Below are positions 592 through 57,272 of a DNA stretch of 64,000 nucleotides, piece by piece. The translations under genes were made by a program, and so were the position numbers. The notes under the pieces are model-generated. The model was not told the DNA's origin. It worked only from the letters and a program-made list of their open reading frames with translations, and ran no database searches. Numbering within the stretch: the stretch's first letter is position 1; each line of letters opens with the position of its first letter. The stretch is from Roseburia hominis (GTDB taxonomy: Bacteria > Bacillota > Clostridia > Lachnospirales > Lachnospiraceae). The DNA lies in NCBI GenBank assembly GCA_040702975.1, contig CP159990.1, positions 1,798,001 through 1,862,000 of the forward strand, given 5' to 3'.

Positions 592-726
592 GTTGCCAAG
601 CATACCTAAGTGAACGTCCGGTGGACGTTCATCTCGGTTGCCAAGCATACCTAAGTGAACGTCCAGTGGACGTTCATCTCGGTTGCCAAGCATACCTAAG
701 TGAACGTCCAGTGGACGTTCATCTCG
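592..726. repeat. Three tandem 45-nt palindromic units (family 1)
   Basis: Units start at 592, 637 and 682 with an exact 45-nt period and differ only at one position of the loop. Each opens with GTTGCCAAGCATACC and contains the hairpin TGAACGTCC-RGT-GGACGTTCA (9-bp stem, 3-nt loop). The third unit ends against the stop codon of the PsiE-like gene at 728. Other copies occur at 9043, 11724, 12768, and in diverged form at 17920, 21964, 52161, 56268 and 61392. Confidence 0.9.
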
Positions 727-727
727 G

Positions 728-1339
728 TCAGCGAATGGAGCGTATCACTTCAATCCTTGTAATATCGCCATTGTGCATTTTGGCCACTCGCAGCCCAAAG
801 GTGTCAAAGTAAGTGCAGGCACCGACCCCGATTTCGGTTTTCTCCTGCTCAAACCTTTGCTTGATGATGTCTTTGAGCGTCTGTTCATCCGCATACGGAA
901 TATGTATGTGAATGAATTGATTTACATGCTTGACCTTTGTTGTGGCCCGGAAAATGATCTTCTCAGATTCGTCAAATTCGCAGAACAGGAATTTCCTGGT
1001 GGCGAACAGGATGGCGATGGATACCACGCCGATTAGAGAGGCTACCGGGTTGGAATGGTCGATGATGATCTGTCTTGCGATCGCAAATAACAGAACCTCG
1101 AATACCGTGGAAGGACTGTGCTGATAAAGCATGCGGATCAGCTCCACGCCGATGATCAGATTGAAACAGTTCTCAAGAAGATCATCGTAGTTGGGATATA
1201 TCTCCAGGTTCGGAATATTCTGGAGCGACAGCGCCAGCTTAAGAGCCAGCAGAGCCACGCTGATGGCCAGCATCAGAGAGATGAATAGTTCCAGAAAGAC
1301 GGTAATCTTGTGCAGGAACGCAGTTACGTACTTTTTCAT
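728..1339 (-). CDS. PsiE-like phosphate-starvation-inducible membrane protein
   Basis: 203 residues. The N-terminal part carries hydrophobic segments at about 8-36 and 84-116, with a further helix near 55-75. The C-terminal third is soluble and contains HVNQFIHIHIPYADEQTL, reminiscent of small regulatory domains attached to transporters. The membrane part resembles the PsiE family, whose function is unknown. It is apparently monocistronic, with a terminator downstream, and its stop codon abuts the repeat array. The family call is from general similarity and the function is not established. Confidence 0.6.
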   Translation of the reverse strand: MKKYVTAFLHKITVFLELFISLMLAISVALLALKLALSLQNIPNLEIYPNYDDLLENCFNLIIGVELIRMLYQHSPSTVFEVLLFAIARQIIIDHSNPVASLIGVVSIAILFATRKFLFCEFDESEKIIFRATTKVKHVNQFIHIHIPYADEQTLKDIIKQRFEQEKTEIGVGACTYFDTFGLRVAKMHNGDITRIEVIRSIR

Positions 1340-1412
1340 AAATTTCCCCTTTCATCCGATATAGATTCATTGTATAGGATAAAAGGGGGAGTTGTAAAGA
1401 TTATTTTATGAT

Positions 1413-2339
1413 TTATAGCTGTAACCGTGTAAAACAATAAGGATACAAAAATATGATCCAGAAGATGATCAGCATATGCTGGATCGTCTGCCCTGCCAGA
1501 TTCGTTCCCACCAGTGCTTTCATGCCGAATTGCAGAAGGGCCGTGAGGGTTATACCGATCACAAAACGCAGGAGCTTTGGCCGGGCGGAAGAGACCGGTC
1601 CCAAAGGGCCGTCCGCCACATTTTCCGTATCATGTCTGCCGGCGGTGGAAAAATTCAGGTAACGCGTTTCCAGGTACCAGCCCAGTCCAAAGCCGAACGC
1701 CGCACCGGAAGCCTTGAAGCAGTCGGAGACGTAGCGCGCCTCGATCACGCCGCCGGAATACAGCAGATAGGAATAGACGCACACGGCTACCGCACCAAGC
1801 GCCGATAAAAGGGAGATCCTTCTTACGTAGAGAGGATTCTCAAGTGCCTCGCGAAATCTCCAGATCAGCAGGGCAAACAGAAGCGAAAGCGCCATGGCGG
1901 TCAGGACATCTTTGGGCGTGTGGCAGCCCAGATACATTCGTGAAAAACCGATCAGAAGGAACAGGGCCGTGTAAAAGCATTTGCCATACCATTTCTTTGA
2001 GGCCAAAGCCAGAGGGGCAAAGAGGCTGGTCCCTCCCTGGGTGTGACCGCTGGGGAAGGAGTAGCCCGTCGCTGCCGGGACGGCACTTTCCACCGCCTGG
2101 AACTTCGGGTCAAGGACCCAGGGGCGGGGAATGCGGAATGTGATTTTCAGGCTCTGTACGCAAAGTCCGGCGCAGACGTAGGTAAGTCCGATCTGAGTCG
2201 CTAATTTCTTGTCCAGGCACCAATAGAGAGCGCACAGTACGCTGATCAGGACGAGCTCCTGTCCCAGATAAGTGATCCACTGGAAAATCTGGTCAAATAA
2301 AGGAGTACGGATTTCTGATAATGCCCACAGGAACTCCAT
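1413..2339 (-). CDS. PAP2-family membrane phosphatase
   Basis: 308 residues with several hydrophobic segments. The three phosphatase motifs are visible: KITFRIPRP (about 65-73), YSFPSGHTQGG (about 93-103) and SRMYLGCHTPKDV (about 132-144). The last two carry the catalytic histidines. Members dephosphorylate lipid phosphates such as phosphatidic acid or undecaprenyl pyrophosphate; the exact substrate cannot be read from sequence. The start ATG overlaps the typA stop codon (TAATG), so translation is probably coupled to typA. Confidence 0.88.
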   Translation of the reverse strand: MEFLWALSEIRTPLFDQIFQWITYLGQELVLISVLCALYWCLDKKLATQIGLTYVCAGLCVQSLKITFRIPRPWVLDPKFQAVESAVPAATGYSFPSGHTQGGTSLFAPLALASKKWYGKCFYTALFLLIGFSRMYLGCHTPKDVLTAMALSLLFALLIWRFREALENPLYVRRISLLSALGAVAVCVYSYLLYSGGVIEARYVSDCFKASGAAFGFGLGWYLETRYLNFSTAGRHDTENVADGPLGPVSSARPKLLRFVIGITLTALLQFGMKALVGTNLAGQTIQHMLIIFWIIFLYPYCFTRLQL

Positions 2340-4162
2340 TAGCTGATCCCTCGTTTACGCATCTTGGGATCCAGGATCTTTTTGCGGATCCGCAGAGACT
2401 TGGGCGTTACTTCCAGTAATTCGTCGGTATCGATAAAGTCGAGGGCTTCCTCAAGACTGAGCACCTTCGGAGGAGTCAGCTTGAGCGCTTCGTCGGCGCT
2501 GGAAGACCGGGTGTTGGTCAAATGCTTGGTCTTACATACATTCAGTTCGATGTCGTCGGTCTTGGCATTCTGTCCAACAACCATACCGCCATAGACCTTC
2601 TCGCCGGGTCCGATGAACAGCGTGCCACGGTCCTGGGCATTAAACAGGCCATAGGCAACGGCTTCTCCGGTTTCGAAGGCGATGAGAGAGCCCTGGTTGC
2701 GATACTGGATATCGCCCTTATAGGGAGCATAGCCGTCGAAGGAGGTATTCATGATTCCGTTTCCCTTGGTGTCGGTCAGGAATTCGCCGCGGTAGCCGAT
2801 AAGGCCCCGGGCCGGCATGGAGAATTCCAGACGGGTGTAACCACCGTTGGACATGCCCATGTTCTGAAGCTCGCCCTTTCTCTGGCTCAGCTTGTCGATG
2901 ACCGTTCCGGTAAATTCGTCGGGAACGTCGATATATACCAGCTCCATAGGTTCCAGTTTCTTGCCGTTTGCATCTGTTTTGTAGAGGACCTCTGCCTTGC
3001 TGACCGCGAATTCGTAGCCCTCGCGGCGCATATTTTCGATGAGAACGGACAGATGAAGCTCTCCACGCCCGGAGACCTTGAAGCTGTCTGTATTTTCGGT
3101 TTCCTCCACCCGGAGGCTGACGTCGGTATTCAGTTCCCGGAACAGCCGGTCGCGGATATGGCGGGAGGTCACGTATTTGCCCTCCAGTCCGGCGAAGGGG
3201 CTGTCATTTACCACGAACTGCATCGCGATGGTCGGCTCGGAGATCTTCTGGAACTCGATCGGCTCCGGACTTTCAGGCGAGCAGATGGTATCTCCGATGG
3301 AGATGTCCGCAATTCCGGAAATGGCGACGATGGAGCCGACAGTGGCTGATTTGACCTCCACTTTATTCAGACCGTCAAACTCATAGAGCTTGCTGATTTT
3401 TACTTTTTTCTGTTTGTCCGGATCGTGGTGGTTGACGACCACAACGTCCTGATTTACGGAAATGGTGCCGTTATCTACTTTGCCCACGCCGATACGTCCT
3501 ACATACTCGTTGTAGTCGATGGTGCTGATAAGGACCTGTGTTCCGGCCTCGGGGTCGCCCTCCGGCGCCGGGATATAGTCGAGGATCGTCTCGAACAGAG
3601 GCGTCATATCTTTGGGCTCATCGTCCTCGTTGTAGGTGGCGTAGCCGTCCCTGGCAGATGCGTAAATGAAGGGGCAGTCAAGCTGGTCGTCGGAGGCTCC
3701 CAGGTCGATGAGAAGCTCCAGGACCTCGTCGATCACGCCGTCCGGTCTCGCCTCGGGACGGTCGATCTTGTTGATGCAGACGATGACGGGGAGCTTTAAG
3801 GCCAGCGCCTTTTTCAGAACGAATTTGGTCTGTGGCATGGCGCCCTCGAAGGCGTCTACCACAAGGATCACGCCGTTGACCATCTTGAGGACACGTTCTA
3901 CCTCTCCGCCGAAATCGGCGTGTCCCGGGGTGTCGATGATGTTGATCTTGGTGTCTTTATAAAAAACGGCTGTGTTCTTGGAGAGGATCGTGATGCCACG
4001 TTCCCGCTCGATATCGTTGGAATCCATGACGCGCTCAGCAACCGCCTGGTTTTCGCGGAATACACCGCTCTGTTTTAATAGTTCATCTACCAATGTTGTC
4101 TTGCCATGGTCAACATGGGCGATGATCGCGATATTTCGTATGTCTTCACACTTTGTTTTCAT
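2339..4162 (-). CDS. typA: Ribosome-associated translational GTPase TypA/BipA
   Basis: 607 residues, the usual family length. G motifs are [15 protein letters not shown] near residue 15, the switch I region [30 protein letters not shown] and [13 protein letters not shown]. Elongation-factor-like domains II, III and V and the TypA-specific C-terminal domain follow, ending KMRKRGIS. TypA binds the ribosome and aids 50S assembly and growth under stress or cold. It is the first gene of a two-gene minus-strand unit with the PAP2 phosphatase. Confidence 0.97.
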
Positions 4163-4373
4163 ATGCTCATACCCTTCTTTGACCGCCGCTTATTTTGCGG
4201 CCAGTTATTTTATTTACCTATTAAATGTTGTAACCCGTATAGTTTATCATATTTTTAGAAATTTACAAGTGGTATGAAAAATTTTTGAATTTTAGTTCTA
4301 AATGGGGCGTGGCGCTCATAGATTAGATAGTGACCCAAAATACATGGACGAAAAGGAAGGAGAATTACATAAC

Positions 4374-5024
4374 ATGTCAGATAAGATTATTGAAAACAAC
4401 CAGGTAACTATTATGGGACAGGTGGACGGAACGTTTACGTTCAGCCATGAGGTGTTCGGCGAAGGCTTCTATATGGTAGATGTGCTGGTGAGGCGCTTAA
4501 GCGGATCAGACGACAGGATACCGCTGATGATCTCGGAGAGGCTGATCGATGTGACGGAGGATTATACCGGGGAATATATTGTGGTCCACGGGCAGTTCCG
4601 TTCCTACAACCGGCATGAGGAACAGAAGAATCGACTGGTGCTGTCTGTTTTCGTAAGGGAGGTCTCTTTTGTGGAGGAGGAGCCGGACGGATCAAAAACG
4701 AACAGTATCCTGCTGGACGGCTATATCTGCAAGGAACCGATCTACCGAAAAACGCCGCTGGGAAGGGAAATCGCCGATCTATTGCTTGCGGTGAACCGGC
4801 CATACGGCAAATCCGATTATATCCCTTGCATCTGCTGGGGGAGAAATGCAAGGTATGCGTCCGGTTTTGAAGTCGGAGAGCACGTGCAGGTGCTGGGAAG
4901 GATTCAGAGCCGGGAGTATGTGAAGAAGCTGTCAGAGACGGAGACGCAGAGAAGGACGGCCTATGAGGTATCCGTGAGCAAATTGGAATGTTTGGAGGAG
5001 TCAGGGTTGTTTCATGAAGAATAA
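4374..5024 (+). CDS. Single-stranded DNA-binding (OB-fold) protein
   Basis: 216 residues from the ATG at 4374, which has AAGGAG upstream; an in-frame ATG at 4344 lacks a site. The C-terminal half (GYICKEPIYRKTPLGREIADLLLAV, then IPCICWGRNA) matches the OB-fold of SSB-type proteins. The N-terminal half looks like a second OB-like segment (VTIMGQVDGTFTFSHEVFGEGF). This two-part form is common in Lachnospiraceae as an accessory SSB. It lacks the acidic DDDIPF-type tail of the housekeeping SSB, so partner recruitment may differ. Divergent from typA. Confidence 0.75.
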   Translation: MSDKIIENNQVTIMGQVDGTFTFSHEVFGEGFYMVDVLVRRLSGSDDRIPLMISERLIDVTEDYTGEYIVVHGQFRSYNRHEEQKNRLVLSVFVREVSFVEEEPDGSKTNSILLDGYICKEPIYRKTPLGREIADLLLAVNRPYGKSDYIPCICWGRNARYASGFEVGEHVQVLGRIQSREYVKKLSETETQRRTAYEVSVSKLECLEESGLFHEE

Positions 5025-5051
5025 TTCAAATGATTAAGCATACTGTTTTTA

Positions 5052-5098
5052 CGGGGGTTATGGAAATTATACATTTTTTTCATAACCCTCGACTTTTT
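5052..5098 (+). terminator. Intrinsic terminator after the SSB-like gene
   Basis: CGGGGGTTATG pairs with CATAACCCTCG (11 bp with one G-U) across an 18-nt loop, and ACTTTTTTC follows. The hairpin lies between the SSB-like gene and the insertion sequence; it could also be part of the left end of the element. Confidence 0.6.
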
Positions 5099-5164
5099 TC
5101 TCTTGTAGAGGTATAATGTCTATATAGTATAGGTATGCTCTACCTATACAGAAAGGAGGATATT

Positions 5165-5746
5165 ATGCCAGTAACAGAGAAAAAATATCCTGACTGGGTG
5201 CAGGAGAAACGGACCAGGGGAACCACCGTCAAAAAGAAAGGTGATACTTATTATCTCTATAAACGCACTTCCAGGCGTGTTCCCGGGAAAAAATACCCAC
5301 AGCCGGTAGATACTTATATCGGCATCATAACTCCGGAAGGAGTCATAAAAAGTGAAAAGAAAAAAATATCCCTGGGAGGGATAGAAGTGAGGGAGTATGG
5401 ATTCTCCAGGGCAGTATGGCAGCTGTGCCCGGAGGGATGGAAGAAACCTCTGGGGAATGACTGGGAGGATGTCCTTTCGGTTATTCTGAAAAAATGGTCA
5501 CCAGAGACCTACCTTGCGAAAGAAAGAGAGATAAAAACGGAGCAGGAATTTCACTATCAGTTTAATGCCCAGGCAGCATCCCTGAGCAGACGGATTTATA
5601 AAGAGCACGGAGTAGAACTTCAAAAACTGCAGATATTGAAAAGTATTTATCTGCTGTATTTTGAAAAAGAAAGGGTGATATCAAAGATTAGTACAGAACA
5701 GGAGGAACTGTTAGAAAAAACAGGGGTGGAACTTTCCGTGTGCTGA
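5165..5746 (+). CDS. Accessory ORF of the insertion sequence, transposase N-terminal-like
   Basis: 193 residues from the ATG at 5165 (AAAGGAGG upstream). The opening, KRTRGTTVKKKGDTYYLYKR then GKKYPQPVDTYIGIITPEG, resembles the N-terminal segment found in some large DDE transposases, where it reads a short strand-rich domain before the catalytic core. No DDE triad is present. It ends 19 nt before the transposase start and in a different frame. Probably an element-encoded partner or a separated N-terminal domain; function unknown. Confidence 0.65.
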   Translation: MPVTEKKYPDWVQEKRTRGTTVKKKGDTYYLYKRTSRRVPGKKYPQPVDTYIGIITPEGVIKSEKKKISLGGIEVREYGFSRAVWQLCPEGWKKPLGNDWEDVLSVILKKWSPETYLAKEREIKTEQEFHYQFNAQAASLSRRIYKEHGVELQKLQILKSIYLLYFEKERVISKISTEQEELLEKTGVELSVC

Positions 5747-5765
5747 GAATGGCTTTCGGACAAAA

Positions 5766-7031
5766 ATGCTTCTGGAATATATGAGGATGGTGCCGGATCC
5801 ACGATGCGGCCGGGAGACAAAGCATGACTCTGCGGAAGTGCTGGTATGTCTGGTGACCGGTTTTCTGGCAGGAAAGACAACTATACGCAGGAGCCTTAGA
5901 TGGTGTAACAAACATCTGGAAGAGCTGCGGGAATATCTTCTATTAAAGAAGGGTATCGCATCCCCGGCAACAGCATGCCGGATCCTATGGGGGATTGACG
6001 TGGAACTGTTTGCGCTGGCATTCATGGAATGGATCGGGGAGATTGTAAGCACGAAAGGAATCCATATATCAATTGACGGAAAGGCACTGCGGGCAGCAAT
6101 GGAGAAAGTGAAGGATTTCAGGGCCCCGATGATCCTGAATGCGATAGATGCGGTAACGGGACTGGTGATCGCGCAGATGCCCATTCAGAATAAAGACTGT
6201 GAGATTAAGGCGATACCGGAGCTGTTGAAACTGCTTGATATCCAGGGAAGTACAGTCACAACAGATGCAATTGGGACACAGACGCAGATCATGGAGCAGA
6301 TCCTTTCCCAGGGGGGACATTTTGTGCTGATGGTAAAAAAGAACCAGCCACAGTCCTATGATGAGATCGTGAAATATTTCGGAGAGATGGCAGAAGACCA
6401 CAAAAAGATGAAAAAAGACAGTAACTACAGGGCAAGGTATCCGGAAATGCAGGAAAAATATGAGGAAGTGTGCCAGCAGGAAAGGAACCGTGACAGGCAG
6501 GAATACCGATGGTACAGCGTTTGTGGGGAATGCAGCCTCCTGACAAAGACACAGAAAGAATGGCCTTTTGTAAAAACAGTGGGATTAGCCCGTCAGATAC
6601 GGATACCGGTTGAACGGGATCCTAAGGGAAATGATATCACACCAGATGTGAGGACATTTCTGGAAAAGGGTTCAAGAAGAAGGCCCAGACCAGTCCAGGA
6701 TGAGGAAAGGCCAAAGGATATACAGAAAACAGGAATGATCTCGGATATGGAACTGACAGCGGAAGAAATGGGACGTATAAAAAGGGAGCACTGGTCGGTC
6801 GAAAACCGACTTCACCATGTGTTAGACGATACGTTCCGTGAAGACAGGTCCCCGGCGAAAAAATCAAAGATCAATCTGGCCCTGATCAGGAAGTTTGCCT
6901 ATAACATCCTGCGGATAGCTATGCTGGCCGGGGACTGTTCGGAGATCATGACAGAAGCTATGGACGAGTTCAGTGATGATCCATTCTTAAGAAAGAAATA
7001 TGTCTTCAACGGGATAGCCAGTTTCTATTGA
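5766..7031 (+). CDS. ISAs1-family transposase
   Basis: 421 residues. The family signature LLEYMRMVPDPRCGRETKH opens the protein. The first DDE aspartate is in ISIDGKALRAA (near 100), the second in VTTDAIGTQ (near 161), and the glutamate is in REHWSVENRLHHVLDDTFREDRS, with the NRLHWVLD-like block typical of ISAs1/H-repeat proteins. It looks intact. The start has no clear ribosome site; translation may depend on coupling to the preceding ORF, which stops 19 nt upstream. Confidence 0.92.
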   Translation: MLLEYMRMVPDPRCGRETKHDSAEVLVCLVTGFLAGKTTIRRSLRWCNKHLEELREYLLLKKGIASPATACRILWGIDVELFALAFMEWIGEIVSTKGIHISIDGKALRAAMEKVKDFRAPMILNAIDAVTGLVIAQMPIQNKDCEIKAIPELLKLLDIQGSTVTTDAIGTQTQIMEQILSQGGHFVLMVKKNQPQSYDEIVKYFGEMAEDHKKMKKDSNYRARYPEMQEKYEEVCQQERNRDRQEYRWYSVCGECSLLTKTQKEWPFVKTVGLARQIRIPVERDPKGNDITPDVRTFLEKGSRRRPRPVQDEERPKDIQKTGMISDMELTAEEMGRIKREHWSVENRLHHVLDDTFREDRSPAKKSKINLALIRKFAYNILRIAMLAGDCSEIMTEAMDEFSDDPFLRKKYVFNGIASFY

Positions 7032-7241
7032 TATAAAATAAGTATAAGTTATTTTGAAAAAAGTGTAAATAAGATATAGGGATATTTTGCGCCTTTTTAG
7101 AGGGCAAACATCTTGGATGCGGGTAAGGAATTGCAAAGGATGCGTTTAGAAAGATTCTGATCTGAATAATAGAGGGGTTATAACAAATGAAGCTGTTTGG
7201 GAAGATTCATGAAACAACCCTGTTGGAGGAGTGAAATCGCA

Positions 7242-7270
7242 TTGACATGGTTTCTATTTAATGATAAACT
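7242..7270 (+). promoter_or_regulatory. Promoter for dapA
   Basis: TTGACA, 17 nt, TAAACT, about 30 nt before the dapA start. The rest of the 270-nt gap 7032-7301 holds the right flank of the insertion sequence and no gene that I can support. No lysine riboswitch was recognised. Confidence 0.75.
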
Positions 7271-7301
7271 GAATCTACAAATGTAAGTCAGGAGGAATAC
7301 T

Positions 7302-8192
7302 ATGTCTATTTTTACCGGGTCAGGTGTGGCGATTGTGACACCATTTCATGAGGACGAGAGCATTAATTATGATAAATTAGATGAATTACTGGAGTACCAT
7401 ATCAGTCATGGCACGGACAGTATCATCATCTGCGGCACGACGGGAGAATCTTCTACGCTGTCGGAGGAAGAGCACATGGACGCGATCAAGTTCACGATCG
7501 AGCGTGTGAAGGGAAGGATTCCGGTGATCGCGGGAACCGGCTCCAACAGTACATATACGACGATTCAGATGTCGAAAGAGGCAGTGGAGGACGGAGCAGA
7601 CGGTCTGCTTCTCGTGACGCCGTATTATAACAAGTGTACCCAGGCAGGTCTTGTGGCGCATTATACGGCAGTGGCGAAGGAAGCGAAGGCGCCGATCATA
7701 CTCTACAGTGTGGCGAGCAGGACGGGAGTGAATATCGCACCGGAGACGGTAGCGGAGATTTTTGAGACGGTGGATAATGTGGTGGCGGTAAAGGAGGCTT
7801 CCGGCAACATTTCCCAGATTTCTAAGATCATGCAGCTTACCGATGGCAGGATCGATCTGTACTCCGGCAATGATGACCAGATCGTACCGCTTCTTTCCCT
7901 GGGAGGAAAAGGCGTGATCTCCGTTCTGGCCAACATCGCACCGCAGTACACACATGATATCTGCGCGAAGTTCTTCGCAGGAGATGTGAAGGGAAGCTGT
8001 AAGATGCAGCTTGATGCACTTCCGCTGATCGAGAAGCTGTTCTGTGAGGTGAATCCGATTCCGGTAAAGAAGGCGCTGAACCTGATGGGAATGGAAGTTG
8101 GACCGCTTAGAATGCCGCTTACAGAGATGACGGAGGCGAATGCCGCGAAGCTTTCGCAGGCCATGCGGGAGTTTGGAATTGAATTAAGGTAA
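7302..8192 (+). CDS. dapA: 4-hydroxy-tetrahydrodipicolinate synthase
   Basis: 296 residues, full length. It condenses pyruvate with aspartate semialdehyde, the first committed step to diaminopimelate and lysine. GTTGES lies at 45-50, TPYYNK at 107-111, the Tyr of LYSVASRTG at 135 (Arg140 for substrate carboxylate) and the Schiff-base lysine at 164 in VAVKEASG. The start has GGAGG at 7 nt and its own promoter. It is followed by dapB after a hairpin. Confidence 0.97.
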   Translation: MSIFTGSGVAIVTPFHEDESINYDKLDELLEYHISHGTDSIIICGTTGESSTLSEEEHMDAIKFTIERVKGRIPVIAGTGSNSTYTTIQMSKEAVEDGADGLLLVTPYYNKCTQAGLVAHYTAVAKEAKAPIILYSVASRTGVNIAPETVAEIFETVDNVVAVKEASGNISQISKIMQLTDGRIDLYSGNDDQIVPLLSLGGKGVISVLANIAPQYTHDICAKFFAGDVKGSCKMQLDALPLIEKLFCEVNPIPVKKALNLMGMEVGPLRMPLTEMTEANAAKLSQAMREFGIELR

Positions 8193-8198
8193 ATGATC

Positions 8199-8225
8199 AG
8201 AGGGGCTGCGAGGAGCAGGCCCTCT
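8199..8225 (+). terminator. Attenuating hairpin between dapA and dapB
   Basis: AGAGGGGCTGC and GCAGGCCCTCT form an 11-bp stem with one mismatch and a 5-nt loop, followed only by TATTGTC. With this weak T-tract it probably allows read-through into dapB. Confidence 0.5.
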
Positions 8226-8266
8226 TATTGTCAAAAATGTGACGAAACCAGGGAGGAAGAGGAAAA

Positions 8267-9025
8267 ATGGTGAGAGCGATTATGTTTGGGTGCAATGGAA
8301 AGATGGGACAGGTCATCACCGGACTGACAAAGGAAGATGAGGGAATCGAGATCGTAGCAGGCGTAGATGCATGGCAGGGAAGGGAGAACCCCTACCCGGT
8401 GTTTTCTTCTCTCGCAGAGTGCGATGTGCCGGCCGACGTTGTGATTGATTTCTCCAATGCGGCGGCGGTGGACGCGCTTCTTGAGGATTGCGTTGCTAAG
8501 AAGCTGCCTCTGGTGCTATGCACAACGGGACTTTCGGAGAAGCAGCTTGGCGATGCGCAGGAGGCAAGCAAGGAGATTGCGGTTCTTCGGTCCGCGAACA
8601 TGTCTCTGGGAGTGAATCTTTTGATGAAATTATTGAAAGATGCGGCTAAGGTGCTGTCCCCGGCCGGATTTGATATTGAGATCGTGGAAAAGCATCACAA
8701 CCAGAAGGTGGACGCGCCCAGTGGAACGGCGGTGGCGCTTGCGGATTCCATCAATGAGGCGATGGACAATAAATTTACCTATCAGTACGACAGAAGCCAG
8801 GTGCGCCAGAAGAGAGAGAAGGACGAAATCGGAATCGTTGCGGTGCGGGGAGGCACGATTGTAGGGCAGCATGATGTGATCTTTGCGGGGGCAGATGAAG
8901 TGATCGAGTTCCAGCATACGGCGTACTCCAAGGCAGTGTTTGGAAAGGGTGCGGTGGAAGCAGCGAAGTTCCTGGCAGGGAAGCCGGCGGGCCGATATGA
9001 TATGAGCGATGTGATTCGGTTCTAA
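8267..9025 (+). CDS. dapB: 4-hydroxy-tetrahydrodipicolinate reductase
   Basis: 252 residues. The nucleotide-binding GCNGKMGQ loop lies at 8-15 and the family signature EKHHNQKVDAPSGTA at 141-155 (catalytic His143/144, Lys147). It reduces the DapA product with NAD(P)H in the diaminopimelate pathway. GGAGG and a 75-nt gap separate it from dapA, so the two are probably co-transcribed. A 45-nt palindromic unit lies directly downstream. Confidence 0.97.
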   Translation: MVRAIMFGCNGKMGQVITGLTKEDEGIEIVAGVDAWQGRENPYPVFSSLAECDVPADVVIDFSNAAAVDALLEDCVAKKLPLVLCTTGLSEKQLGDAQEASKEIAVLRSANMSLGVNLLMKLLKDAAKVLSPAGFDIEIVEKHHNQKVDAPSGTAVALADSINEAMDNKFTYQYDRSQVRQKREKDEIGIVAVRGGTIVGQHDVIFAGADEVIEFQHTAYSKAVFGKGAVEAAKFLAGKPAGRYDMSDVIRF

Positions 9026-9042
9026 CTGCGGGGCATACTTGA

Positions 9043-9089
9043 GTTGCCAAGCATACCTGAAATAAGGTCCAGTGGACCTTATTTTGGTG
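9043..9089. repeat. Family 1 palindromic unit with compensated stem
   Basis: GTTGCCAAGCATACC is kept, but the stem is AAATAAGGTCC-AGT-GGACCTTATTT (11 bp, perfect) instead of TGAACGTCC/GGACGTTCA. Both arms changed together. A partial GGGCATACTTGA precedes it at about 9031-9042. It may also serve as a terminator for dapB. Confidence 0.85.
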
Positions 9090-9183
9090 AAGGTCCGGCG
9101 AATCTTTCTGCCGGCTGTCAGACATATGAGAAAGAAGCGTTCGGCCTTTCATAATGATCGAACGTTATATATAAAGAGGATAC

Positions 9184-9218
9184 TGCCGTTTTGCTCTTGG
9201 GGGTAAGCGAAAACGGCA
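9184..9218 (+). promoter_or_regulatory. Leader hairpin upstream of fbp
   Basis: TGCCGTTTT (9184-9192) pairs perfectly with AAAACGGCA (9210-9218); GCT/AGC can extend the stem past a bulge. It ends 8 nt before the GAGGAGG ribosome site. There is no T-tract, so it is not an obvious terminator. Confidence 0.5.
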
Positions 9219-9244
9219 TAAAATATGAGGAGGAAATGAAAAAG

Positions 9245-11200
9245 ATGAGTGTAATGAAAGAACGGTATCTCGAGAGGTTGTCGGAACTATTCCCGACCAT
9301 AGCGGCGGCCTCCACGGAGATCATTAATCTGCAGGCGATCCTGAACCTGCCCAAGGGGACGGAGCATTTTCTGTCGGATGTCCATGGAGAGTATGAGGCG
9401 TTCGCGCACGTACTCAAGAATGGTTCCGGTTCGGTAAAGCGGAAGATCGATGAAGTGTTTGCCAATACCATGAGCGCCAGGGACAAGCAGTCTCTTGCGA
9501 CCCTGATCTATTATCCGAGGGAGAAGATGGATCAGATCAAGCTGGTAGAGACTAATATGGAGGATTGGTATAAGATCACGCTATACCGCCTGATTGAGAT
9601 CAGCAACAAGACGGCGGGAAAATATACGCGCTCCAAGGTGCGCAAAGCGCTTCCGAAGGATTTTGCGTATGTGATCGAAGAGCTTTTGACGGAGAAGTCG
9701 GATCTTCTGGATAAGGAATCCTACTATGCGTCTATTATCAGCACGATTATCAGCATCGGCAGGGCGGAGGAATTCATCGTTGCGCTCTGTGAACTGATTC
9801 AGCGTCTGGTGGTGGATCACCTTCATATAGTTGGAGATATCTATGACAGAGGACCAGGTCCGCATCTGATCATGGATAAACTAATGGAGTACCATTCTGT
9901 GGATATTCAGTGGGGCAATCATGATGTCCTGTGGATGGGAGCGGCAGCAGGGCAGAAATGCTGTATCGCCAATGTGATCCGCATCTGTGCTCGTTACGGC
10001 AACCTGGATATTCTGGAGGATGGTTATGGTATCAACCTCCTGCCCCTTGCTACGTTCGCATGGAAAAAATATGCGAAGGATCCCTGCGAGTGTTTCCGGC
10101 TGCGAGGAGACGCCGAGACAGAGGCCCCGCAGGAGAGAGAACTGAACATGAAGATGCACAAGGCGATCTCCATTATACAGTTCAAGATTGAAGGGCAGAT
10201 TTCCAGACTGCATCCGGATTTCGAGTTTGAATCCAGGAATTTCCTGCACCTGATCAATTTTGACAAAGGTACGGTCATGATCGACGGGAAAGAATATCAG
10301 ATGCTGGACGATTATTTTCCGACGATCGATCCTGCAGCGCCATATGAGCTGTCAGCGGAGGAAGCGGACATCATGGACCGTCTGGTGAAGGCGTTCCAGA
10401 ATTGCGAGAAGCTGCAGCGCCATATGAGATTCCTCCTGAACAAGGGCGGACTCTATAAGATTTATAATTCCAACCTGCTGTATCATGGCTGTGTGCCTCT
10501 TGACGAGGAGGGCAACATGAAGCAGGTTCAGATTTACGGAAAGACCTACAAGGGCAAATCCTTGTATGACATCCTGGACTCCTACGTGCGAAAAGCATTT
10601 TTTGCGGTGGATAAGGTGGAGCGGGAAAAGGGCAAGGACCTGATGTGGTATATCTGGCAGGGCAAGAATTCGCCGCTGTTCGGCAAGGATAAGATGGCGA
10701 CCTTTGAACGGTATTTTGTCAGCGAAACGGAACTGCATAAGGAACATAAGAATCCTTATTATACATTCTATGAGAATGAAGAAGTCATGAACCGGATTCT
10801 GGAAGAGTGCGGACTGGATACGAAGAACTCGCGTATTATTAACGGCCATGTTCCGGTCAAAGCGACAAAAGGGGAAAGTCCGGTCAAGTGCGGCGGTAAG
10901 GTCCTGATCATCGATGGAGGCTTCTCCCGGGCATACCAGAAGGAGACAGGAATCGCAGGATATACTCTGATCTATAATTCATACGGACTGATCCTGGCGT
11001 GCCACGAGCCATTTGAATCGGCGGAGGCAGCCATCGAAAAGGAGATGGATATCCATTCCAAGAATACGATGATCGTTCAGATGCCGACCAGAAGGAGAGT
11101 GGGCGATACGGATGTGGGAAAAGTGCTCACGGAGCGGATTGCCGACCTGACGGAGCTTCTGGAGGCCTACCGGAGTGGTAAGATCACTGAGAAGGCTTAG
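9245..11200 (+). CDS. fbp: Fructose-1,6-bisphosphatase, class III
   Basis: 651 residues from the ATG at 9245, 11 nt after GAGGAGG; an in-frame ATG at 9236 would be only 2 nt away. Metallophosphatase motifs are DVHGEYEAFAH (about 44-54), GDIYDRGPGPH, WGNHDVLWMGAAAG and INGHVPVK. This Firmicute-specific class hydrolyses fructose-1,6-bisphosphate in gluconeogenesis and is unrelated to class I. Length fits the family (about 640-670). It is monocistronic, with a hairpin in its leader. Confidence 0.95.
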   Translation: MSVMKERYLERLSELFPTIAAASTEIINLQAILNLPKGTEHFLSDVHGEYEAFAHVLKNGSGSVKRKIDEVFANTMSARDKQSLATLIYYPREKMDQIKLVETNMEDWYKITLYRLIEISNKTAGKYTRSKVRKALPKDFAYVIEELLTEKSDLLDKESYYASIISTIISIGRAEEFIVALCELIQRLVVDHLHIVGDIYDRGPGPHLIMDKLMEYHSVDIQWGNHDVLWMGAAAGQKCCIANVIRICARYGNLDILEDGYGINLLPLATFAWKKYAKDPCECFRLRGDAETEAPQERELNMKMHKAISIIQFKIEGQISRLHPDFEFESRNFLHLINFDKGTVMIDGKEYQMLDDYFPTIDPAAPYELSAEEADIMDRLVKAFQNCEKLQRHMRFLLNKGGLYKIYNSNLLYHGCVPLDEEGNMKQVQIYGKTYKGKSLYDILDSYVRKAFFAVDKVEREKGKDLMWYIWQGKNSPLFGKDKMATFERYFVSETELHKEHKNPYYTFYENEEVMNRILEECGLDTKNSRIINGHVPVKATKGESPVKCGGKVLIIDGGFSRAYQKETGIAGYTLIYNSYGLILACHEPFESAEAAIEKEMDIHSKNTMIVQMPTRRRVGDTDVGKVLTERIADLTELLEAYRSGKITEKA

Positions 11201-11246
11201 ACTTGGATTGTAAAAAATTGGAAGTACCATTTTATACATATTATTT

Positions 11247-11296
11247 CCCTTTCTGTAAATGATAGCTTTATGAAAACGATATATTTACAGAAAGGG
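11247..11296 (+). promoter_or_regulatory. 14-bp leader hairpin that contains the ribosome site of the lipoprotein gene
   Basis: CCCTTTCTGTAAAT (11247-11260) and ATTTACAGAAAGGG (11283-11296) are perfect complements with a 22-nt loop. The right arm carries AAAGGG, the only plausible ribosome site for the ATG at 11307. Folding would hide it. Confidence 0.6.
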
Positions 11297-11306
11297 AGAT
11301 TTCATT

Positions 11307-11624
11307 ATGAAACATTTTAAGAAAATTTTACTGGTGATGACCTGCGTACTTGCTATGGGAGCAATGACTGCCTGCGGCAGTGACAATACGGAAGATGACA
11401 TGTTAAATGGAACGACGAATAACGGAACGACAAATGGGGATACCACGGGCAATGGCACTGGTACAGGCAATGTCAATGATGCGACGGGAGGAACTACGGC
11501 GGGAGACGCCCTTGATGATGCGGCGGACGACGTGCGTGACGGAATTGATGACGTGGAGGACGATCTCACAGGCGATAATGCGGATGACCGGACCGAGAAC
11601 CAGAAGAATGCAGAAAATCGTTAG
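11307..11624 (+). CDS. Small acidic lipoprotein
   Basis: 105 residues. A lipoprotein signal peptide ends in GAMTAC with Cys at about 22. The mature part is low-complexity, Thr/Asn/Gly-rich and then Asp-rich (DALDDAADDVRDGIDDVEDD), and probably extended and strongly negative at the cell surface. No catalytic domain is visible. A terminator follows. Function unknown. Confidence 0.75.
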   Translation: MKHFKKILLVMTCVLAMGAMTACGSDNTEDDMLNGTTNNGTTNGDTTGNGTGTGNVNDATGGTTAGDALDDAADDVRDGIDDVEDDLTGDNADDRTENQKNAENR

Positions 11625-11692
11625 TTATCTGGCAGGCCTGAAGGAAGGATCATAGGAACTTCAAGGTTTGCAACATGAGCTAATGTCAGGAG

Positions 11693-11724
11693 GAGACGGA
11701 AGAAGATAGTTCCGTCTCTTTTTG
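11693..11724 (+). terminator. Terminator after the lipoprotein gene
   Basis: GAGACGGAA and TTCCGTCTC form a 9-bp stem with an 8-nt loop, followed by TTTTTG. Confidence 0.8.
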
Positions 11725-11769
11725 TTGCCAAGCATACCTAAGCGAACGTTCAGTGGACCTTCATCTTGG
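11724..11769. repeat. Family 1 palindromic unit
   Basis: GTTGCCAAGCATACCTAAG followed by CGAACGTTC-AGT-GGACCTTCA and TCTTGG. The stem is imperfect here. It begins directly at the terminator T-tract of the lipoprotein gene. Confidence 0.8.
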
Positions 11770-11775
11770 TTTCAT

Positions 11776-11799
11776 AGGAATGTGTGGGAGCACATTCCT
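11776..11799 (+). terminator. Small hairpin upstream of the hisA promoter
   Basis: AGGAATGTG and CACATTCCT (9 bp, 6-nt loop) are followed by ATTTTCT. Possibly a second terminator insulating hisA. Confidence 0.45.
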
Positions 11800-11811
11800 A
11801 TTTTCTGGGTA

Positions 11812-11840
11812 TTGTCAAAGAAATTACATTTTTATATAAT
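11812..11840 (+). promoter_or_regulatory. Promoter for hisA
   Basis: TTGTCA, 17 nt, TATAAT, 32 nt before the hisA start codon. Confidence 0.75.
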
Positions 11841-11871
11841 AGAGAAATGAATATTTTTGGAGGAGATCAGG

Positions 11872-12675
11872 ATGAAATTTCGACCATGCATCGACATACA
11901 TAACGGTAAGGTGAAACAGATTGTGGGAGGGAGCCTAAAGGATCAGGGCGACCAGGCGGATACGAATTATGAATCCAGGCAGGGTGCAGCGTATTATGCG
12001 AAGCTGTATCGGAGGGATCATTTGACTGGGGGGCACATTATTCTGCTGAACCCGGCCTCTTCGCCGTATTATGAGGAGACGAGGGCGCAGGCGCTTGCGG
12101 CCCTTAGCGCGTATCCCGGGGGCCTGCAGATCGGCGGCGGGATTACGGCGGAGAAAGCCGGAGAGTATTTGGCTGCGGGGGCGTCCCATGTGATCGTGAC
12201 TTCCTATGTGTTTCAGAATGGGAACATAAACTGGGAGCATTTAAAACGGCTCACGGATGCGGTGGGCCGGGAGCATGTTGTGCTGGATCTCAGCTGCCGC
12301 AGGAAGCCGGACGGAGAATACTATATCGTGACGGACCGCTGGCAGAAGTTTACCGATGTGAGAGTAAGTGAGGAAGTGATGGAGACTCTGGCGGAATATT
12401 GTGATGAATTTCTGATACACGGGGTAGATGTGGAAGGCAGATCGGCAGGGGCGCCGGAGGAATTGGTCAGGCTCCTTGCCGCGCATAGAATCAGGAAGAT
12501 TACGTATGCCGGAGGAATCGGAAGCATGGAAGATCTTAAGCGATTTGAGGAATGCTCCGGGGGCAGACTGGATTTTACGATCGGAAGTGCACTGGATATT
12601 TTCGGAGGAACGATCTCTTATGCAGCGCTCGTACAGAGGGAGTCGGAGTGTGAACAGGATAAGAAGAGTTTGTGA
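11872..12675 (+). CDS. hisA: HisA, eukaryotic-type ProFAR isomerase
   Basis: 267 residues from the ATG at 11872 (GGAGGAG upstream). A TIM barrel begins MKFRPCIDIHNGKVKQIVGG. It carries the second-half phosphate-binding segment YAGGIGSMEDL and TIGSALDIFGG. The extra insertions (DTNYESRQGAAYYAKLY, RKPDGEYYIVTDRWQKFTD) and length match the HIS6-type isomerase of fungi and plants rather than the roughly 240-residue bacterial HisA. It would isomerise ProFAR to PRFAR in histidine synthesis. No other his gene is adjacent. Confidence 0.85.
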   Translation: MKFRPCIDIHNGKVKQIVGGSLKDQGDQADTNYESRQGAAYYAKLYRRDHLTGGHIILLNPASSPYYEETRAQALAALSAYPGGLQIGGGITAEKAGEYLAAGASHVIVTSYVFQNGNINWEHLKRLTDAVGREHVVLDLSCRRKPDGEYYIVTDRWQKFTDVRVSEEVMETLAEYCDEFLIHGVDVEGRSAGAPEELVRLLAAHRIRKITYAGGIGSMEDLKRFEECSGGRLDFTIGSALDIFGGTISYAALVQRESECEQDKKSL

Positions 12676-12691
12676 ATAGTTAATAAACTCA

Positions 12692-12720
12692 TTGAAGAAA
12701 CGGGTAAATAGTGTTAAAAT
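12692..12720 (+). promoter_or_regulatory. Promoter for secA
   Basis: TTGAAG, 17 nt, TAAAAT. It leaves a leader of about 190 nt that contains the two repeat units at 12768-12857. Confidence 0.6.
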
Positions 12721-12767
12721 GTGGAATGAATCTATTTTTGTGTGGAGTTTTTCTGCGCATATATAAG

Positions 12768-12857
12768 ATATCAAGCATACCTGAGTGAACGTCCGGTGGA
12801 CATTCATCTCGGTTGCCAAGCATGCCTGAGTGAATGTCCGGTGGACATTCATCTCGG
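12768..12857. repeat. Two tandem family 1 units in the secA leader
   Basis: Unit 1 has stem TGAACGTCC-GGT-GGACATTCA with one non-pairing position. Unit 2 has TGAATGTCC-GGT-GGACATTCA, fully paired. Both keep AAGCATRCCTGAG and TCTCGG. Confidence 0.85.
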
Positions 12858-12916
12858 TAGAATGGGAACCGGTGCAGATATCTGACCGGTATAGTTTTTG
12901 AGTAAGGAGTTAGGAC

Positions 12917-15484
12917 ATGGGCTTTTTCGAAAAAATATTTGGAACACATAGTGAAAATGAGTTGAAGAGGATTTATCCGATCGTTGATCACATTGAGGCG
13001 CTGGAACCAGAGATCAAGAAGCTCTCCGATGCAGAACTTGCGGGGAAGACCCGGGAATTTAAGGAACGTCTGGCTAAGGGCGAGACACTGGATGACATTC
13101 TTCCGGAGGCATTTGCGGTAGTTCGTGAGGCGTCAGTTCGTACGATCGGGCTTCGGCATTTCCGGGTGCAGCTGATCGGCGGCGTGATCCTTCATCAGGG
13201 AAGAATCGCGGAGATGAAGACCGGTGAAGGTAAGACACTGGTATCCACTCTGCCGGCATATTTGAATGCGCTGACCGGAGATGGCGTGTGCATCGTAACG
13301 GTGAATGACTACCTGGCAAAGCGTGATGCCGAGTGGATGGGACAGATTCATGAATTTCTGGGGCTGACGGTAGGCGTGGTCCTGAACTCCATGAACAATG
13401 ACGAGAGACGCGCGGCCTATAATTGTGATATCACGTATGTTACCAACAATGAGCTTGGTTTTGACTATCTTCGTGATAACATGGTCATCTATAAGGAACA
13501 GCTTGTGCAGCGCGGCATGAAGTATGCGATCATCGACGAGGTGGACTCCGTACTGATCGACGAGGCAAGGACGCCTCTGATCATTTCCGGTCAGAGCGGA
13601 AAGTCGACCCGGCTTTATGAGGCGTGCGATATTTTGGCGAGACAGCTTCAGAAAGGTGAGGCAAGCGGCGAATTTTCCAAGATGAACGCCATCATGGGCG
13701 AGGAGATCGAAGAGACAGGTGATTTTATCGTAAATGAGAAGGAACGTAACGTGAACCTGACGGAAGACGGCGTCAAGAAGGTAGAGCGTTTCTTCCATAT
13801 TGAGAACCTGGCAGATCCGGAGAATCTGGAGATTCAGCACAATATTATTCTGGCGCTGCGCGCACATTATTTGATGTTCCGGGATCAGGACTATGTGGTG
13901 AAGGACGACGAAGTATTGATCGTAGATGAGTTTACCGGACGTATCATGCCCGGACGCCGTTATTCGGATGGTCTGCATCAGGCAATCGAGGCGAAAGAGC
14001 ATGTGAAGGTAAAAAGAGAGAGCAAGACGCTTGCTACGATCACCTTCCAGAATTTATTCAATAAATTTGAAAAGAAGAGTGGTATGACCGGTACGGCGCT
14101 GACCGAGGAGAATGAGTTCCGCGATATTTATGGAATGGACGTCATCGAGATTCCGACGAATGTGCCGGTACAGAGGCAGGATTTAAATGATGTCGTATAC
14201 AAGACAAAGAAAGAGAAATTCCAGGCAGTTATCGATGAGATCTGTGCTGCTCATGAAAAAGGACAGCCGGTCCTGGTAGGTACGATCACCATTGAGACCT
14301 CCGAACTTCTCAGCAAGATGCTGACCAGAAGAGGGGTGAAGCACAATGTCTTGAACGCCAAGTTCCATGAGATGGAGGCGGAGATTGTTGCGCAGGCAGG
14401 ACAGCACGGAGCGGTGACGATTGCGACCAACATGGCAGGGCGTGGTACGGATATCAAGCTGGACGACAGTGCGCGTGCGGCCGGGGGCTTAAAGATCATC
14501 GGTACGGAGCGTCATGAGTCCAGACGAATTGATAATCAGCTTCGTGGCCGTGCCGGACGTCAGGGCGATCCGGGAGAATCCAGATTCTACATTTCTCTGG
14601 AAGATGACCTGATGCGTCTGTTCGGTTCAGAGCGTCTGATGAATGTATTTACGACACTGGGCGTAGAAGAAGGGGAGCAGATCGAACACAAGATGCTTTC
14701 CAGCGCGATCGAGAAAGCGCAGAAGAAGATCGAGAATAATAACTTTGGAATTCGTAAGAATCTGTTGGAATATGACCAGGTAATGAATGAGCAGAGAGAG
14801 ATCATTTACGAGGAGAGAAGGAGGGTTCTGGACGGCGAGAATATGCGGGATTCTATTTTCCATATGATCACCGAATTTGTGGAGAACGCGGTGGACTCCA
14901 ATATTTCTGCGGAAGTGGATTATGAAGATTGGGATCTGGGAGCGCTGAACCGTGATCTTGCGGCTGTCATTCCGTCCCTGCCGCCGGTAAGAACGGAGGA
15001 TGTGAAGGATAAAGAGGTCAAGCAGCTCAAGCATCTTTTGAAGGAGCGGGCTGCCAAGGCATATGAGGATAAGGAAGCCGAGTTCCCGGAGGCAGAGCAT
15101 CTGCGTGAGGTGGAGCGGGTATTCCTGCTTCGGGTGATTGATGCAAGATGGATGAATCACATCGACGATATGGATCAGCTTCGCCAGGGAATCGGACTGC
15201 AGGCTTATGGACAGAGAGATCCGCTGGTAGAGTATAAGATGCTGGGCTATGATATGTTCGGAGAGATGACCCGGGCGATCACGATGGATACGGTACGCCT
15301 TCTGTTCCATGTGAAGGTAGAGCAGAAAGTGGAGAGAGAGCAGGTTGCCAAGGTGACCGGAACGAATAAAGATGAGAGCGCAGTGAGGGCGCCGAAGACG
15401 CGGAGTGAGAAGAAGATTTATCCGAACGATCCGTGTCCGTGCGGAAGCGGCAAGAAGTATAAACAGTGCTGCGGACGGAAATAG
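12917..15484 (+). CDS. secA: Preprotein translocase ATPase SecA
   Basis: 855 residues. Walker A is [10 protein letters not shown] near 100, the DEAD-like box is [16 protein letters not shown] near 207-222, and motifs GTDIKLDD and [16 protein letters not shown] follow. The C-terminal zinc finger is [13 protein letters not shown] (ligand pattern CxC...CC). It powers protein export through SecYEG at the membrane. The ATG follows AAGGAG. prfB lies 76 nt downstream, a common order in Firmicutes. Confidence 0.98.
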
Positions 15485-56989: not shown

Positions 56990-57272
56990 ATAGGAAATGC
57001 TATGACAGGGAGGAGTACATAATTTTCTGATGCAAAGAGAGGGAACGGCGGGTGTAAGTTCTCGTGAAGAGATTATGGAAGTAGCCTTTGAGCAGCGAAC
57101 CAAACGGGCGGCGGGCCTTAGTAGACTTCGACGTGACTCTCACGTTACAGAGAAACAATATCGGACAAAAGGTCCCGTATTGACAGAGTGCAGAGAGAAT
57201 TCTCTGAATTTAGGTGGTAACACGGATTGTATATTCGCCCTAGGCTAGCAATAGTTTAGGGCATTTTTATTG
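56990..57272 (+). promoter_or_regulatory. T-box riboswitch, probable valine specifier
   Basis: The 14-nt T-box AGGTGGTAACACGG lies at 57212-57225 and the terminator stem GCCCTA / TAGGGC at 57237-57262, followed by ATTTTTATT. In stem I, CAUAAU (57019-57024) pairs with AUUAUG (57072-57077); GGAGUA on the 5' side faces GAA-GUA-G on the 3' side, giving GUA (Val) at 57081-57083 as specifier. Uncharged tRNA would stabilise the antiterminator and switch on ilvB-ilvN. This explains the 487-nt gap between folA and ilvB. Confidence 0.85.

What the first reader, a model, noticed from the sequence alone, without database searches (positions are those of the whole stretch)
592..12857. A family of 45-nt palindromic intergenic units with compensated stems
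Units with lead GTTGCCAAGCATACC and an internal hairpin occur at 592 (x3), 9043, 11724 and 12768 (x2), always outside genes. At 9043 both arms of the stem changed (TGAACGTCC/GGACGTTCA to AAATAAGGTCC/GGACCTTATTT) and still pair; in the second 12812 unit both arms carry the same C-to-T change. The lead is kept while the stem varies, which suggests selection on folding or a mechanism that copies hairpins, as with REP/BIME elements. Diverged copies appear elsewhere in the window. I know of no named element with this lead.
Basis: seen in the sequence. Interest (0 to 1): 0.72.

Follow-up and report, generated by a model that had tools for sequence, protein, structure and literature searches.

The report
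Mobile hairpin repeat targeting gene terminators
A 45-base hairpin repeat is scattered through this bacterium's genome, often just behind the stop signals of transcription on one strand of the replication fork and now and then in frame inside genes, which points to a mobile DNA family whose mover is still unknown.

Summary
The repeat is real. Seven units lie in the window; the whole-genome model search gives 154 matches, 150 of them listed and grouped into 118 arrays. Stem arms covary. Relatives occur in 14 other genera of the family, in none of 290 other genomes sampled across the class. Paper searches for its strings found nothing relevant. In three (MtaA, SfsA-MutY, FolC) the aligned homologues lack the 30-residue insert or, in one, keep a remnant. 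Sites follow a rule: in fetched stretches, intergenic T-tracts carry a copy in 41 of 164 cases if behind a hairpin on the lagging-strand template, 2 of 101 on the other strand, 18 of 789 and 5 of 1269 without hairpin. No RAYT-like or intact Y1 gene was found in this genome. I read it as a non-autonomous REP/RPE-like element inserted as single-stranded DNA behind terminator-like sites; the enzyme is unidentified. Published group IIC introns follow a like rule.

The parts
592..728 (+). array of three 45-nt units (592, 637, 682) plus trailing GT
   Evidence: no T-tract directly upstream and strict terminator test not met
9043..9088 (+). single unit, AAATAAGG-stem subfamily, 17 nt after the stop of ORF 8267-9025
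   Evidence: compensated stem; terminator test not met
11724..11770 (+). single unit directly behind a terminator-like hairpin and T-tract (about 11694-11723)
12767..12858 (+). array of two units (12767 with degenerate lead GATATCAAGC; 12812), between ORF 11857-12675 and ORF 12917-15484
   Evidence: the 12767 unit scored 51.1 bits in the whole-genome search; terminator test not met
592..607 (+). lead of the first unit with mini-hairpin TGC-CAA-GCA; pairs 2-13 and 4-10 covary over the family
611..631 (+). main hairpin TGAACGTCC-GGT-GGACGTTCA of the first unit; stem covaries across units and genomes

Best explanation
The repeat is a non-autonomous mobile element, REP/RPE-like in behaviour. Its unit (main form: 43-nt core TGCC...CTCG with GY on both sides, net gain 45 nt) folds on the strand that reads GTTGCC... 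and inserts precisely, in the cases checked without loss of flanking residues, immediately 3' of a T-tract, by strong preference one that follows a hairpin (an intrinsic terminator), on the strand that is the lagging-strand template at the replication fork. Shown by the data here: past insertion into genes, target preference, strand preference, conserved fold, spread in the family. Inferred: that the substrate is single-stranded DNA exposed at the fork, and that an enzyme supplied in trans (I think most likely an HUH/Y1-type single-strand transposase not linked to the element, possibly now lost from this genome) cuts after the hairpin-T-tract at the target and after the element's own hairpin, which in other genomes is itself a hairpin plus T-tract. 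Most insertions persist where they do least harm, behind genes; a 45-nt unit with open frames can also persist in frame inside proteins.
For: Copy number: 154 matches, 150 listed, 149 of these at E 0.0012 or better; only 150 of 1929 first-look candidates were scored. The four commonest 43-nt cores occur 7, 6, 5 and 5 times, mostly far apart. Past insertion: MtaA has exactly 30 residues that the 9 aligned homologues lack, and none of 80 genome loci fetched with it holds the element pattern; SfsA-MutY has 30 residues that four homologues lack and a 97% identical one keeps only as CQGYLSE; FolC has 34 residues (two units and 4 more) that 5 homologues lack. Target: T at -5, -4, -3 in 94, 87, 97 of 118 array starts; a T-run of 4 or more in the last 12 nt in 67 of 118, in 6.5% of 21400 random positions. 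Strict terminator test 64 of 118, 2-8 of 118 at ten shifted positions, 11 of 118 on the other strand behind the unit. Both factors count: 41/164, 2/101, 18/789, 5/1269. Strand: 107 of 118 arrays co-oriented with replication, genes 489 of 609 (p 0.0017); with the nearest upstream gene on the same strand 92 co and 3 anti (p 2e-6 against the gene bias); T-runs of 5 or more are commoner on the other strand, 643 to 436 in intergenic DNA. Fold. In other genomes 28 of 35 units follow a T-run of 4 or more.
Against: No enzyme found: Y1 matches in 14 of 18 genomes with copies (two of the 18, G003 and G006, are positive by the model only); 28 of the 54 matched places were fetched with flanks and show no element hairpin, only a few single lead-like matches. 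G005 (100% complete) and G267 (99%) have copies and no Y1 match; this genome has only a Y1 gene with stops. In the passages I read, HUH transposases are not said to need a hairpin in the target, whereas group IIC introns follow terminators. Empty sites were shown at protein level or in diverged DNA, not in a near-identical strain. Ori and ter are inferred from GC skew of 106 fetched stretches and the window. Hairpin-less arrays are co-oriented in 38 of 44, not above the gene bias (p 0.21). 54 of 118 arrays fail the strict terminator test, among them seven of nine in-gene arrays and three of the window's four; 52 of 118 have no T4 run in the last 9 nt and do not enter.
Confidence: 0.55

Rival explanations
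1. RNA-mediated insertion: a short RNA copy is inserted by group IIC-intron-type machinery (reverse transcriptase RNP acting in trans), a bacterial SINE-like parasite.
For: The site rule resembles the published rule for bacterial-C group II introns: directly after rho-independent terminators and strand-biased (PMC8919778, passages). The one group II intron maturase match in this genome belongs to an intron that sits at ...CTGGTTATTTTTA|GTTTGCG after a hairpin, on the strand co-oriented with replication.
Against: The 45-nt unit has no ribozyme domain; Rfam finds no intron family in the window or in the element loci scanned. The maturase domain is not found in 9 of 18 genomes with copies, among them G167 with 8 copies; G222 with 14 copies has only a fragment under the cut-off.
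Confidence: 0.2
2. Enzyme-free copying by template switching of the lagging strand between T-tracts (microhomology).
For: Strand bias and T-tract microhomology; in other genomes the unit itself ends in TTTTTTA before GT; head-to-tail arrays.
Against: In this genome the unit's own 3' end is mostly TCTCG, not a T-tract, yet arrays still sit behind T-tracts, and a hairpin raises use about elevenfold on the co strand.
Confidence: 0.15
3. Not mobile now: an old element kept at gene ends for a function (second terminator, mRNA 3' end, gyrase site).
For: Stem kept by covariation; in other genomes the hairpin AAAAAGGTCC/GGACCTTTTTT looks like a two-way terminator.
Against: The T-tract is lost in the amplified form; inserts in enzymes are absent from aligned homologues; of 60 relatives searched with the model, 55 have no match at E 0.01 and five have 1-4 (strict filters), so copies are not a shared set.
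Confidence: 0.1

Closest known systems
REP elements with RAYT (TnpA-REP), GTAG- or CGTC-tagged
   Same: short palindromic hairpins, high copy number, mostly intergenic, some copies in ORFs (PMC3733652, passages); TnpA-REP acts on single-stranded REP (PMC8266576, passages)
   Different: no GTAG or CGTC end tag, no RAYT found in this genome, single or head-to-tail, terminator/T-tract target, longer lead
Rickettsia palindromic elements (RPE)
   Same: palindromic repeats found in frame inside conserved protein genes and between genes (PMC2229807, passages); that their mover is unknown is recalled
   Different: RPE are 105-146 bp there; here 42-45 nt with a target and strand rule; other phylum
IS200/IS605 insertion sequences and their non-autonomous derivatives
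   Same: hairpins near the ends, insertion into the lagging-strand template (PMC6006769, passages); insertion 3' of a short fixed site (recalled)
   Different: no transposase linked; hairpin in the target
Bacterial-C (group IIC) introns
   Same: insertion right behind rho-independent terminators, strand bias (PMC8919778, passages)
   Different: no ribozyme or reverse transcriptase in the element

Membership tests
REP/RAYT | GTAG or CGTC tetranucleotide at one end of the hairpin | tested here: not met
   ends are GTTGCC and CTCGGY; CGTC occurs only inside one stem variant
REP/RAYT | associated RAYT gene, usually flanked by the repeats | tested here: not met
   PF01797 in G000: one gene with stops in a stretch without model matches (L177); RAYT-like query of G222: 0 in G000, 7 of 18 genomes with copies; 28 fetched Y1 places of 54 matches show no element
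REP/RAYT | inverted pairs (BIME/REPIN) | tested here: not met
   118 arrays: 92 single, 26 head-to-tail
RPE-like in-frame palindromic elements | in-frame insertion in conserved protein genes with homologues lacking it | tested here: met
   MtaA, SfsA-MutY, FolC; six further ORFs not aligned with homologues
RPE-like in-frame palindromic elements | sequence kinship to Rickettsia RPE | not tested
   no RPE sequence was fetched
IS200/IS605 derivative | no target duplication, insertion 3' of a fixed short target on the lagging-strand template | tested here: inconclusive
   exact 30-residue gain in two proteins; T-rich target; strand bias; the cut relative to GY is not resolved
IS200/IS605 derivative | ends shared with a full-length IS carrying tnpA | tested here: not met
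   no element at the 28 fetched Y1 places nor around the G000 Y1 gene (L177); the remaining matches of the 54 were not fetched
Group IIC intron or derivative | insertion behind terminators on one fork strand | tested here: met
   as a preference
Group IIC intron or derivative | ribozyme domains | tested here: not met
   Rfam
MITE | terminal inverted repeats with target duplication | tested here: not met
   ends asymmetric; only GY shared at both sides, so a 2-nt duplication is not excluded

The most novel reading that the evidence does not exclude
A new class of bacterial mobile DNA: a 42-45-nt parasite without genes that recognises transcription terminators as structures (hairpin plus T-tract) at the replication fork, mimics that structure with its own 3' hairpin so that it can stack head to tail, and is mobilised in trans by machinery that is neither a RAYT nor encoded by the element, possibly group IIC-type reverse transcriptase as a bacterial SINE analogue.
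Probability: 0.25. Interest if true: 0.85.

Novelty: new variant of a known kind. Interest (0 to 1): 0.62.

Why it matters
How small palindromic repeats such as RPE enter genes, and what moves REP-like repeats in genomes without a RAYT, is to my knowledge open. This family offers over 100 arrays in one single-contig genome with a quantified site rule (hairpin, T-tract, fork strand) and clean in-frame inserts, so strand, target and enzyme can be tested. It also suggests that terminators are hot spots for elements other than group IIC introns, and that core enzymes such as FolC can carry 30 extra residues from a repeat.

Tried and rejected
RAYT or Y1 partner: searched by family and by protein, none linked. 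Group II intron partner: present here, not found in half of the genomes with copies. Viral spread: exact pattern in viral contigs 0 stretches, in genome contigs 0 stretches (records of the own genome or one very near may be left out). Known RNA family: the Rfam gathering scan of the window gave only a T-box; a permissive scan of L330, L182, L117, L118 gave, besides intron matches in L330, two microRNA-family matches at or beside elements and one lncRNA match, these three below the gathering scores and taken as chance. Co-orientation due only to genes: rejected for arrays with a same-strand upstream gene, not rejected for hairpin-less arrays taken alone. Target dinucleotide matching position 13 in first units: not significant (Fisher p 0.22). 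G-T against A-C asymmetry in stems to tell which strand folds: weak, 33 against 23. DNA-level empty site in the same genus: MtaA matches in two same-genus genomes, diverged at the site in the one read. Rows dropped: of the first 30 loci, three odd units and repeats of the same unit were left out of the 20-row model alignment; four unlisted matches of 154 and 17 lead-only places are not among the 150 units; 13 of 150 units were left out of the covariation count as off-centre and identical ones merged; 9 of 118 first units left out of the dinucleotide count; one of ten in-ORF calls (1257223, before a STAS gene) discarded as a probable wrong start.
Full report
What is there. The window holds seven units in four arrays at 592, 9043, 11724 and 12767, all on the + strand. 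The lead GTTGCCAAGCATACC with up to three mismatches occurs nine times against 1.14 expected. The window is part of a single 4,257,935-base contig, G000; there the 14-base lead with at most one mismatch occurs 127 times, the reversed pattern once. A covariance model (R1) built from 20 units gives 154 matches; 150 are listed, 149 of them at E 0.0012 or better and one at 0.085; only 150 of 1929 candidates were scored, so the true number may be larger. The 150 form 118 arrays: 92 single, 21 double, 4 triple, 1 quadruple, head to tail, mostly 45 nt apart.

Anatomy. A unit has a lead with a small hairpin (TGC-CAA-GCA), then a long stem with loop RGT. Of 20 pairs tested on 116 distinct centred units, seven (13-47, 20-40, 21-39, 24-36, 25-35; lead 2-13, 4-10) are paired more often than in any of 500 shuffles, 23-37 in all but 16, and 12 are not above shuffles, most of these being nearly invariant; 16-44 and 18-42 are paired in only 24 of 116. 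Shuffles do not remove shared ancestry. The stronger argument is that 30 units of 16 other genomes (15 genera, the own genus included) keep pairing with quite different stems: 0.87-0.97 paired at stem positions 4-10, against 0.61-0.87 when the 3' arm comes from another genome; positions 1-3 are fixed by the search pattern and positions 11-14 show no pairing.

Spread. The pattern TTGCCANGCATN{6,20}TCCNGYGGA occurs in 16 of 299 family genomes: this one (82 matches), one of the same genus (2) and 14 of other genera (14 matches in G222, 8 in G167, 1-3 in the rest); the reversed control is 0 in all. In a class-wide sample none of the other 290 genomes matches. With R1, 6 of 61 genomes incl. this one match at E 0.01. 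The other genomes have a 42-nt form such as GTTGCCAAGCATACGACAAAAAGGTCCGGTGGACCTTTTTTA.

Where it inserts. The listed units with their flanks show that arrays often start directly behind T-tracts, many of them those of intrinsic terminators on the same strand. T is found in 60, 94, 87, 97 and 73 of 118 at -6 to -2; a run of at least four T lies in the last 12 nt in 67 of 118 starts and 6.5% of 21400 random positions. A strict terminator test is met by 64 of 118 array starts, by 2-8 of 118 at ten shifted positions and by 11 of 118 on the opposite strand behind the first unit. A looser hairpin score exceeds the 95th percentile of random positions in 74 of 118. In other genomes 28 of 35 units follow a run of at least four T.

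Strand. GC skew of the fetched stretches puts the origin near 0.36 Mb and the terminus near 2.6 Mb. 107 of 118 arrays are co-oriented with replication, called genes 489 of 609 (p 0.0017). If the nearest upstream gene is on the same strand, 92 are co and 3 anti (p 2e-6); if on the other strand, 15 and 8 (enclosing genes are left out of this count). A model with replication alone is not rejected by this table (chi-square 2.58; p 0.46 as computed with 3 degrees of freedom, about 0.27 with 2 by my own reckoning). T-runs of five or more in intergenic DNA are rarer on the co strand (436 against 643). Hairpin-less arrays are co in 38 of 44, which is far above the T-run ratio but not above the gene bias (p 0.21). 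Among intergenic T4+ tracts in the fetched stretches, an element follows 41 of 164 with a hairpin on the co strand, 2 of 101 with a hairpin on the other, 18 of 789 without on the co strand and 5 of 1269 without on the other. Only the 66 of 118 arrays with such a tract in the last 9 nt enter, a few of them in genes while the background is intergenic; stretches were chosen around copies, so the rates are relative; gene calls and hairpin scores are my own scripts. In G222, 10 of the 13 listed copies are co-oriented by the same criterion.

Inside genes. Eight of nine are co-oriented with replication; two of nine pass the strict terminator test. Three were aligned with homologues. MtaA: exactly 30 residues more than the nine aligned homologues; none of 80 fetched genome loci has the element pattern; a script read 72 of the 80 near the site, 32 were printed, one of these (L254) at a wrong place. 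SfsA-MutY: exactly 30 residues more than P0122; a 97% identical protein (P0121) keeps only CQGYLSE and four others have nothing, so the fusion itself is native. FolC: 34 residues, the two units and 4 more, absent from five homologues. The other six were not aligned. Because out-of-frame inserts would break the gene call, in-frame location says nothing about targeting; it shows tolerance and past insertion.

Ends. In 109 first units read the opening dinucleotide is GT in 80 and GC in 8; last units mostly end in GGY. Net gain in two proteins is a multiple of 45 nt, so one GY should come from the target. FolC fits in part: the Cys before the insert is present in two of five homologues. The exact cut is not resolved.

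What moves it. Y1 (PF01797) matches exist in 14 of 18 genomes with copies (G003 and G006 are positive by R1 only), 54 matches; 28 places fetched with flanks show no element, only single lead-like matches in a few. This genome has one Y1 gene with stops, in a stretch without model matches, and no match to a RAYT-like protein of G222, which itself matches 7 of the 18. The group II intron maturase domain is found in 9 of 18, 8 over the cut-off. In this genome the single match belongs to a group II intron (Rfam group-II-D1D4-3) behind a hairpin and TTATTTTTA, the element's own type of site. Published work says that bacterial-C introns insert right behind rho-independent terminators and with strand bias (PMC8919778, passages). 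I rank a single-strand DNA route with an unlinked HUH-type enzyme first because of REP, RPE and IS200/IS605 precedent (passages), but the site rule itself points as much to the intron-type route, and the enzyme claim is inference.

Prior art. No paper in the searched library holds the lead strings; six stem and lead strings gave two papers on other subjects (listing only). Searches for Lachnospiraceae palindromic repeats listed none on this family among the 20 and 15 shown. The REP, RPE, HUH and intron papers were read in passages only. In PMC3733652 the words Firmicutes and terminator do not occur. The library lacks most subscription papers, so absence there is not proof.

Verdict. A real palindromic element, spread thinly through the family and amplified here, with clear signs of past movement; a new variant of the REP/RPE kind with an unusually clear target and strand rule and without a known mover.

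Noticed in passing
G000:C1 1087886-1088119 (L330 1-2000): The one group II intron found in this genome sits directly behind a hairpin and TTATTTTTA, the same kind of site as the repeat.
   Followed up: partly
G000:C1 3821319-3823169 (L169): SfsA and MutY are natively fused in this group of bacteria; the 120 homologues listed carry both sets of domains, most at about 575-598 residues.
   Followed up: partly
P0121: A 97% identical SfsA-MutY homologue keeps only CQGYLSE of the insert, as if the hairpin part had been deleted in frame.
   Followed up: no
G000:C1 near 975200 and 1343290: Units of the A-rich type (TTGCGAAGCATACTAAAAAACGTCC..., TTGCTATGCATACGACAAAAACGTCC...) lie directly before other units, as if new copies had inserted behind old ones.
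   Followed up: no
window 56993-57245: T-box leader (Rfam RF00230, 108.9 bits).
   Followed up: no
G000:C1 3717846-3718213 (L177): Y1 transposase gene with stops inside, away from the repeats.
   Followed up: partly
G222, G033, G067, G089, G169, G003: RAYT-like Y1 proteins in open frames of about 220-295 aa occur in several genomes with copies but not next to them.
   Followed up: partly
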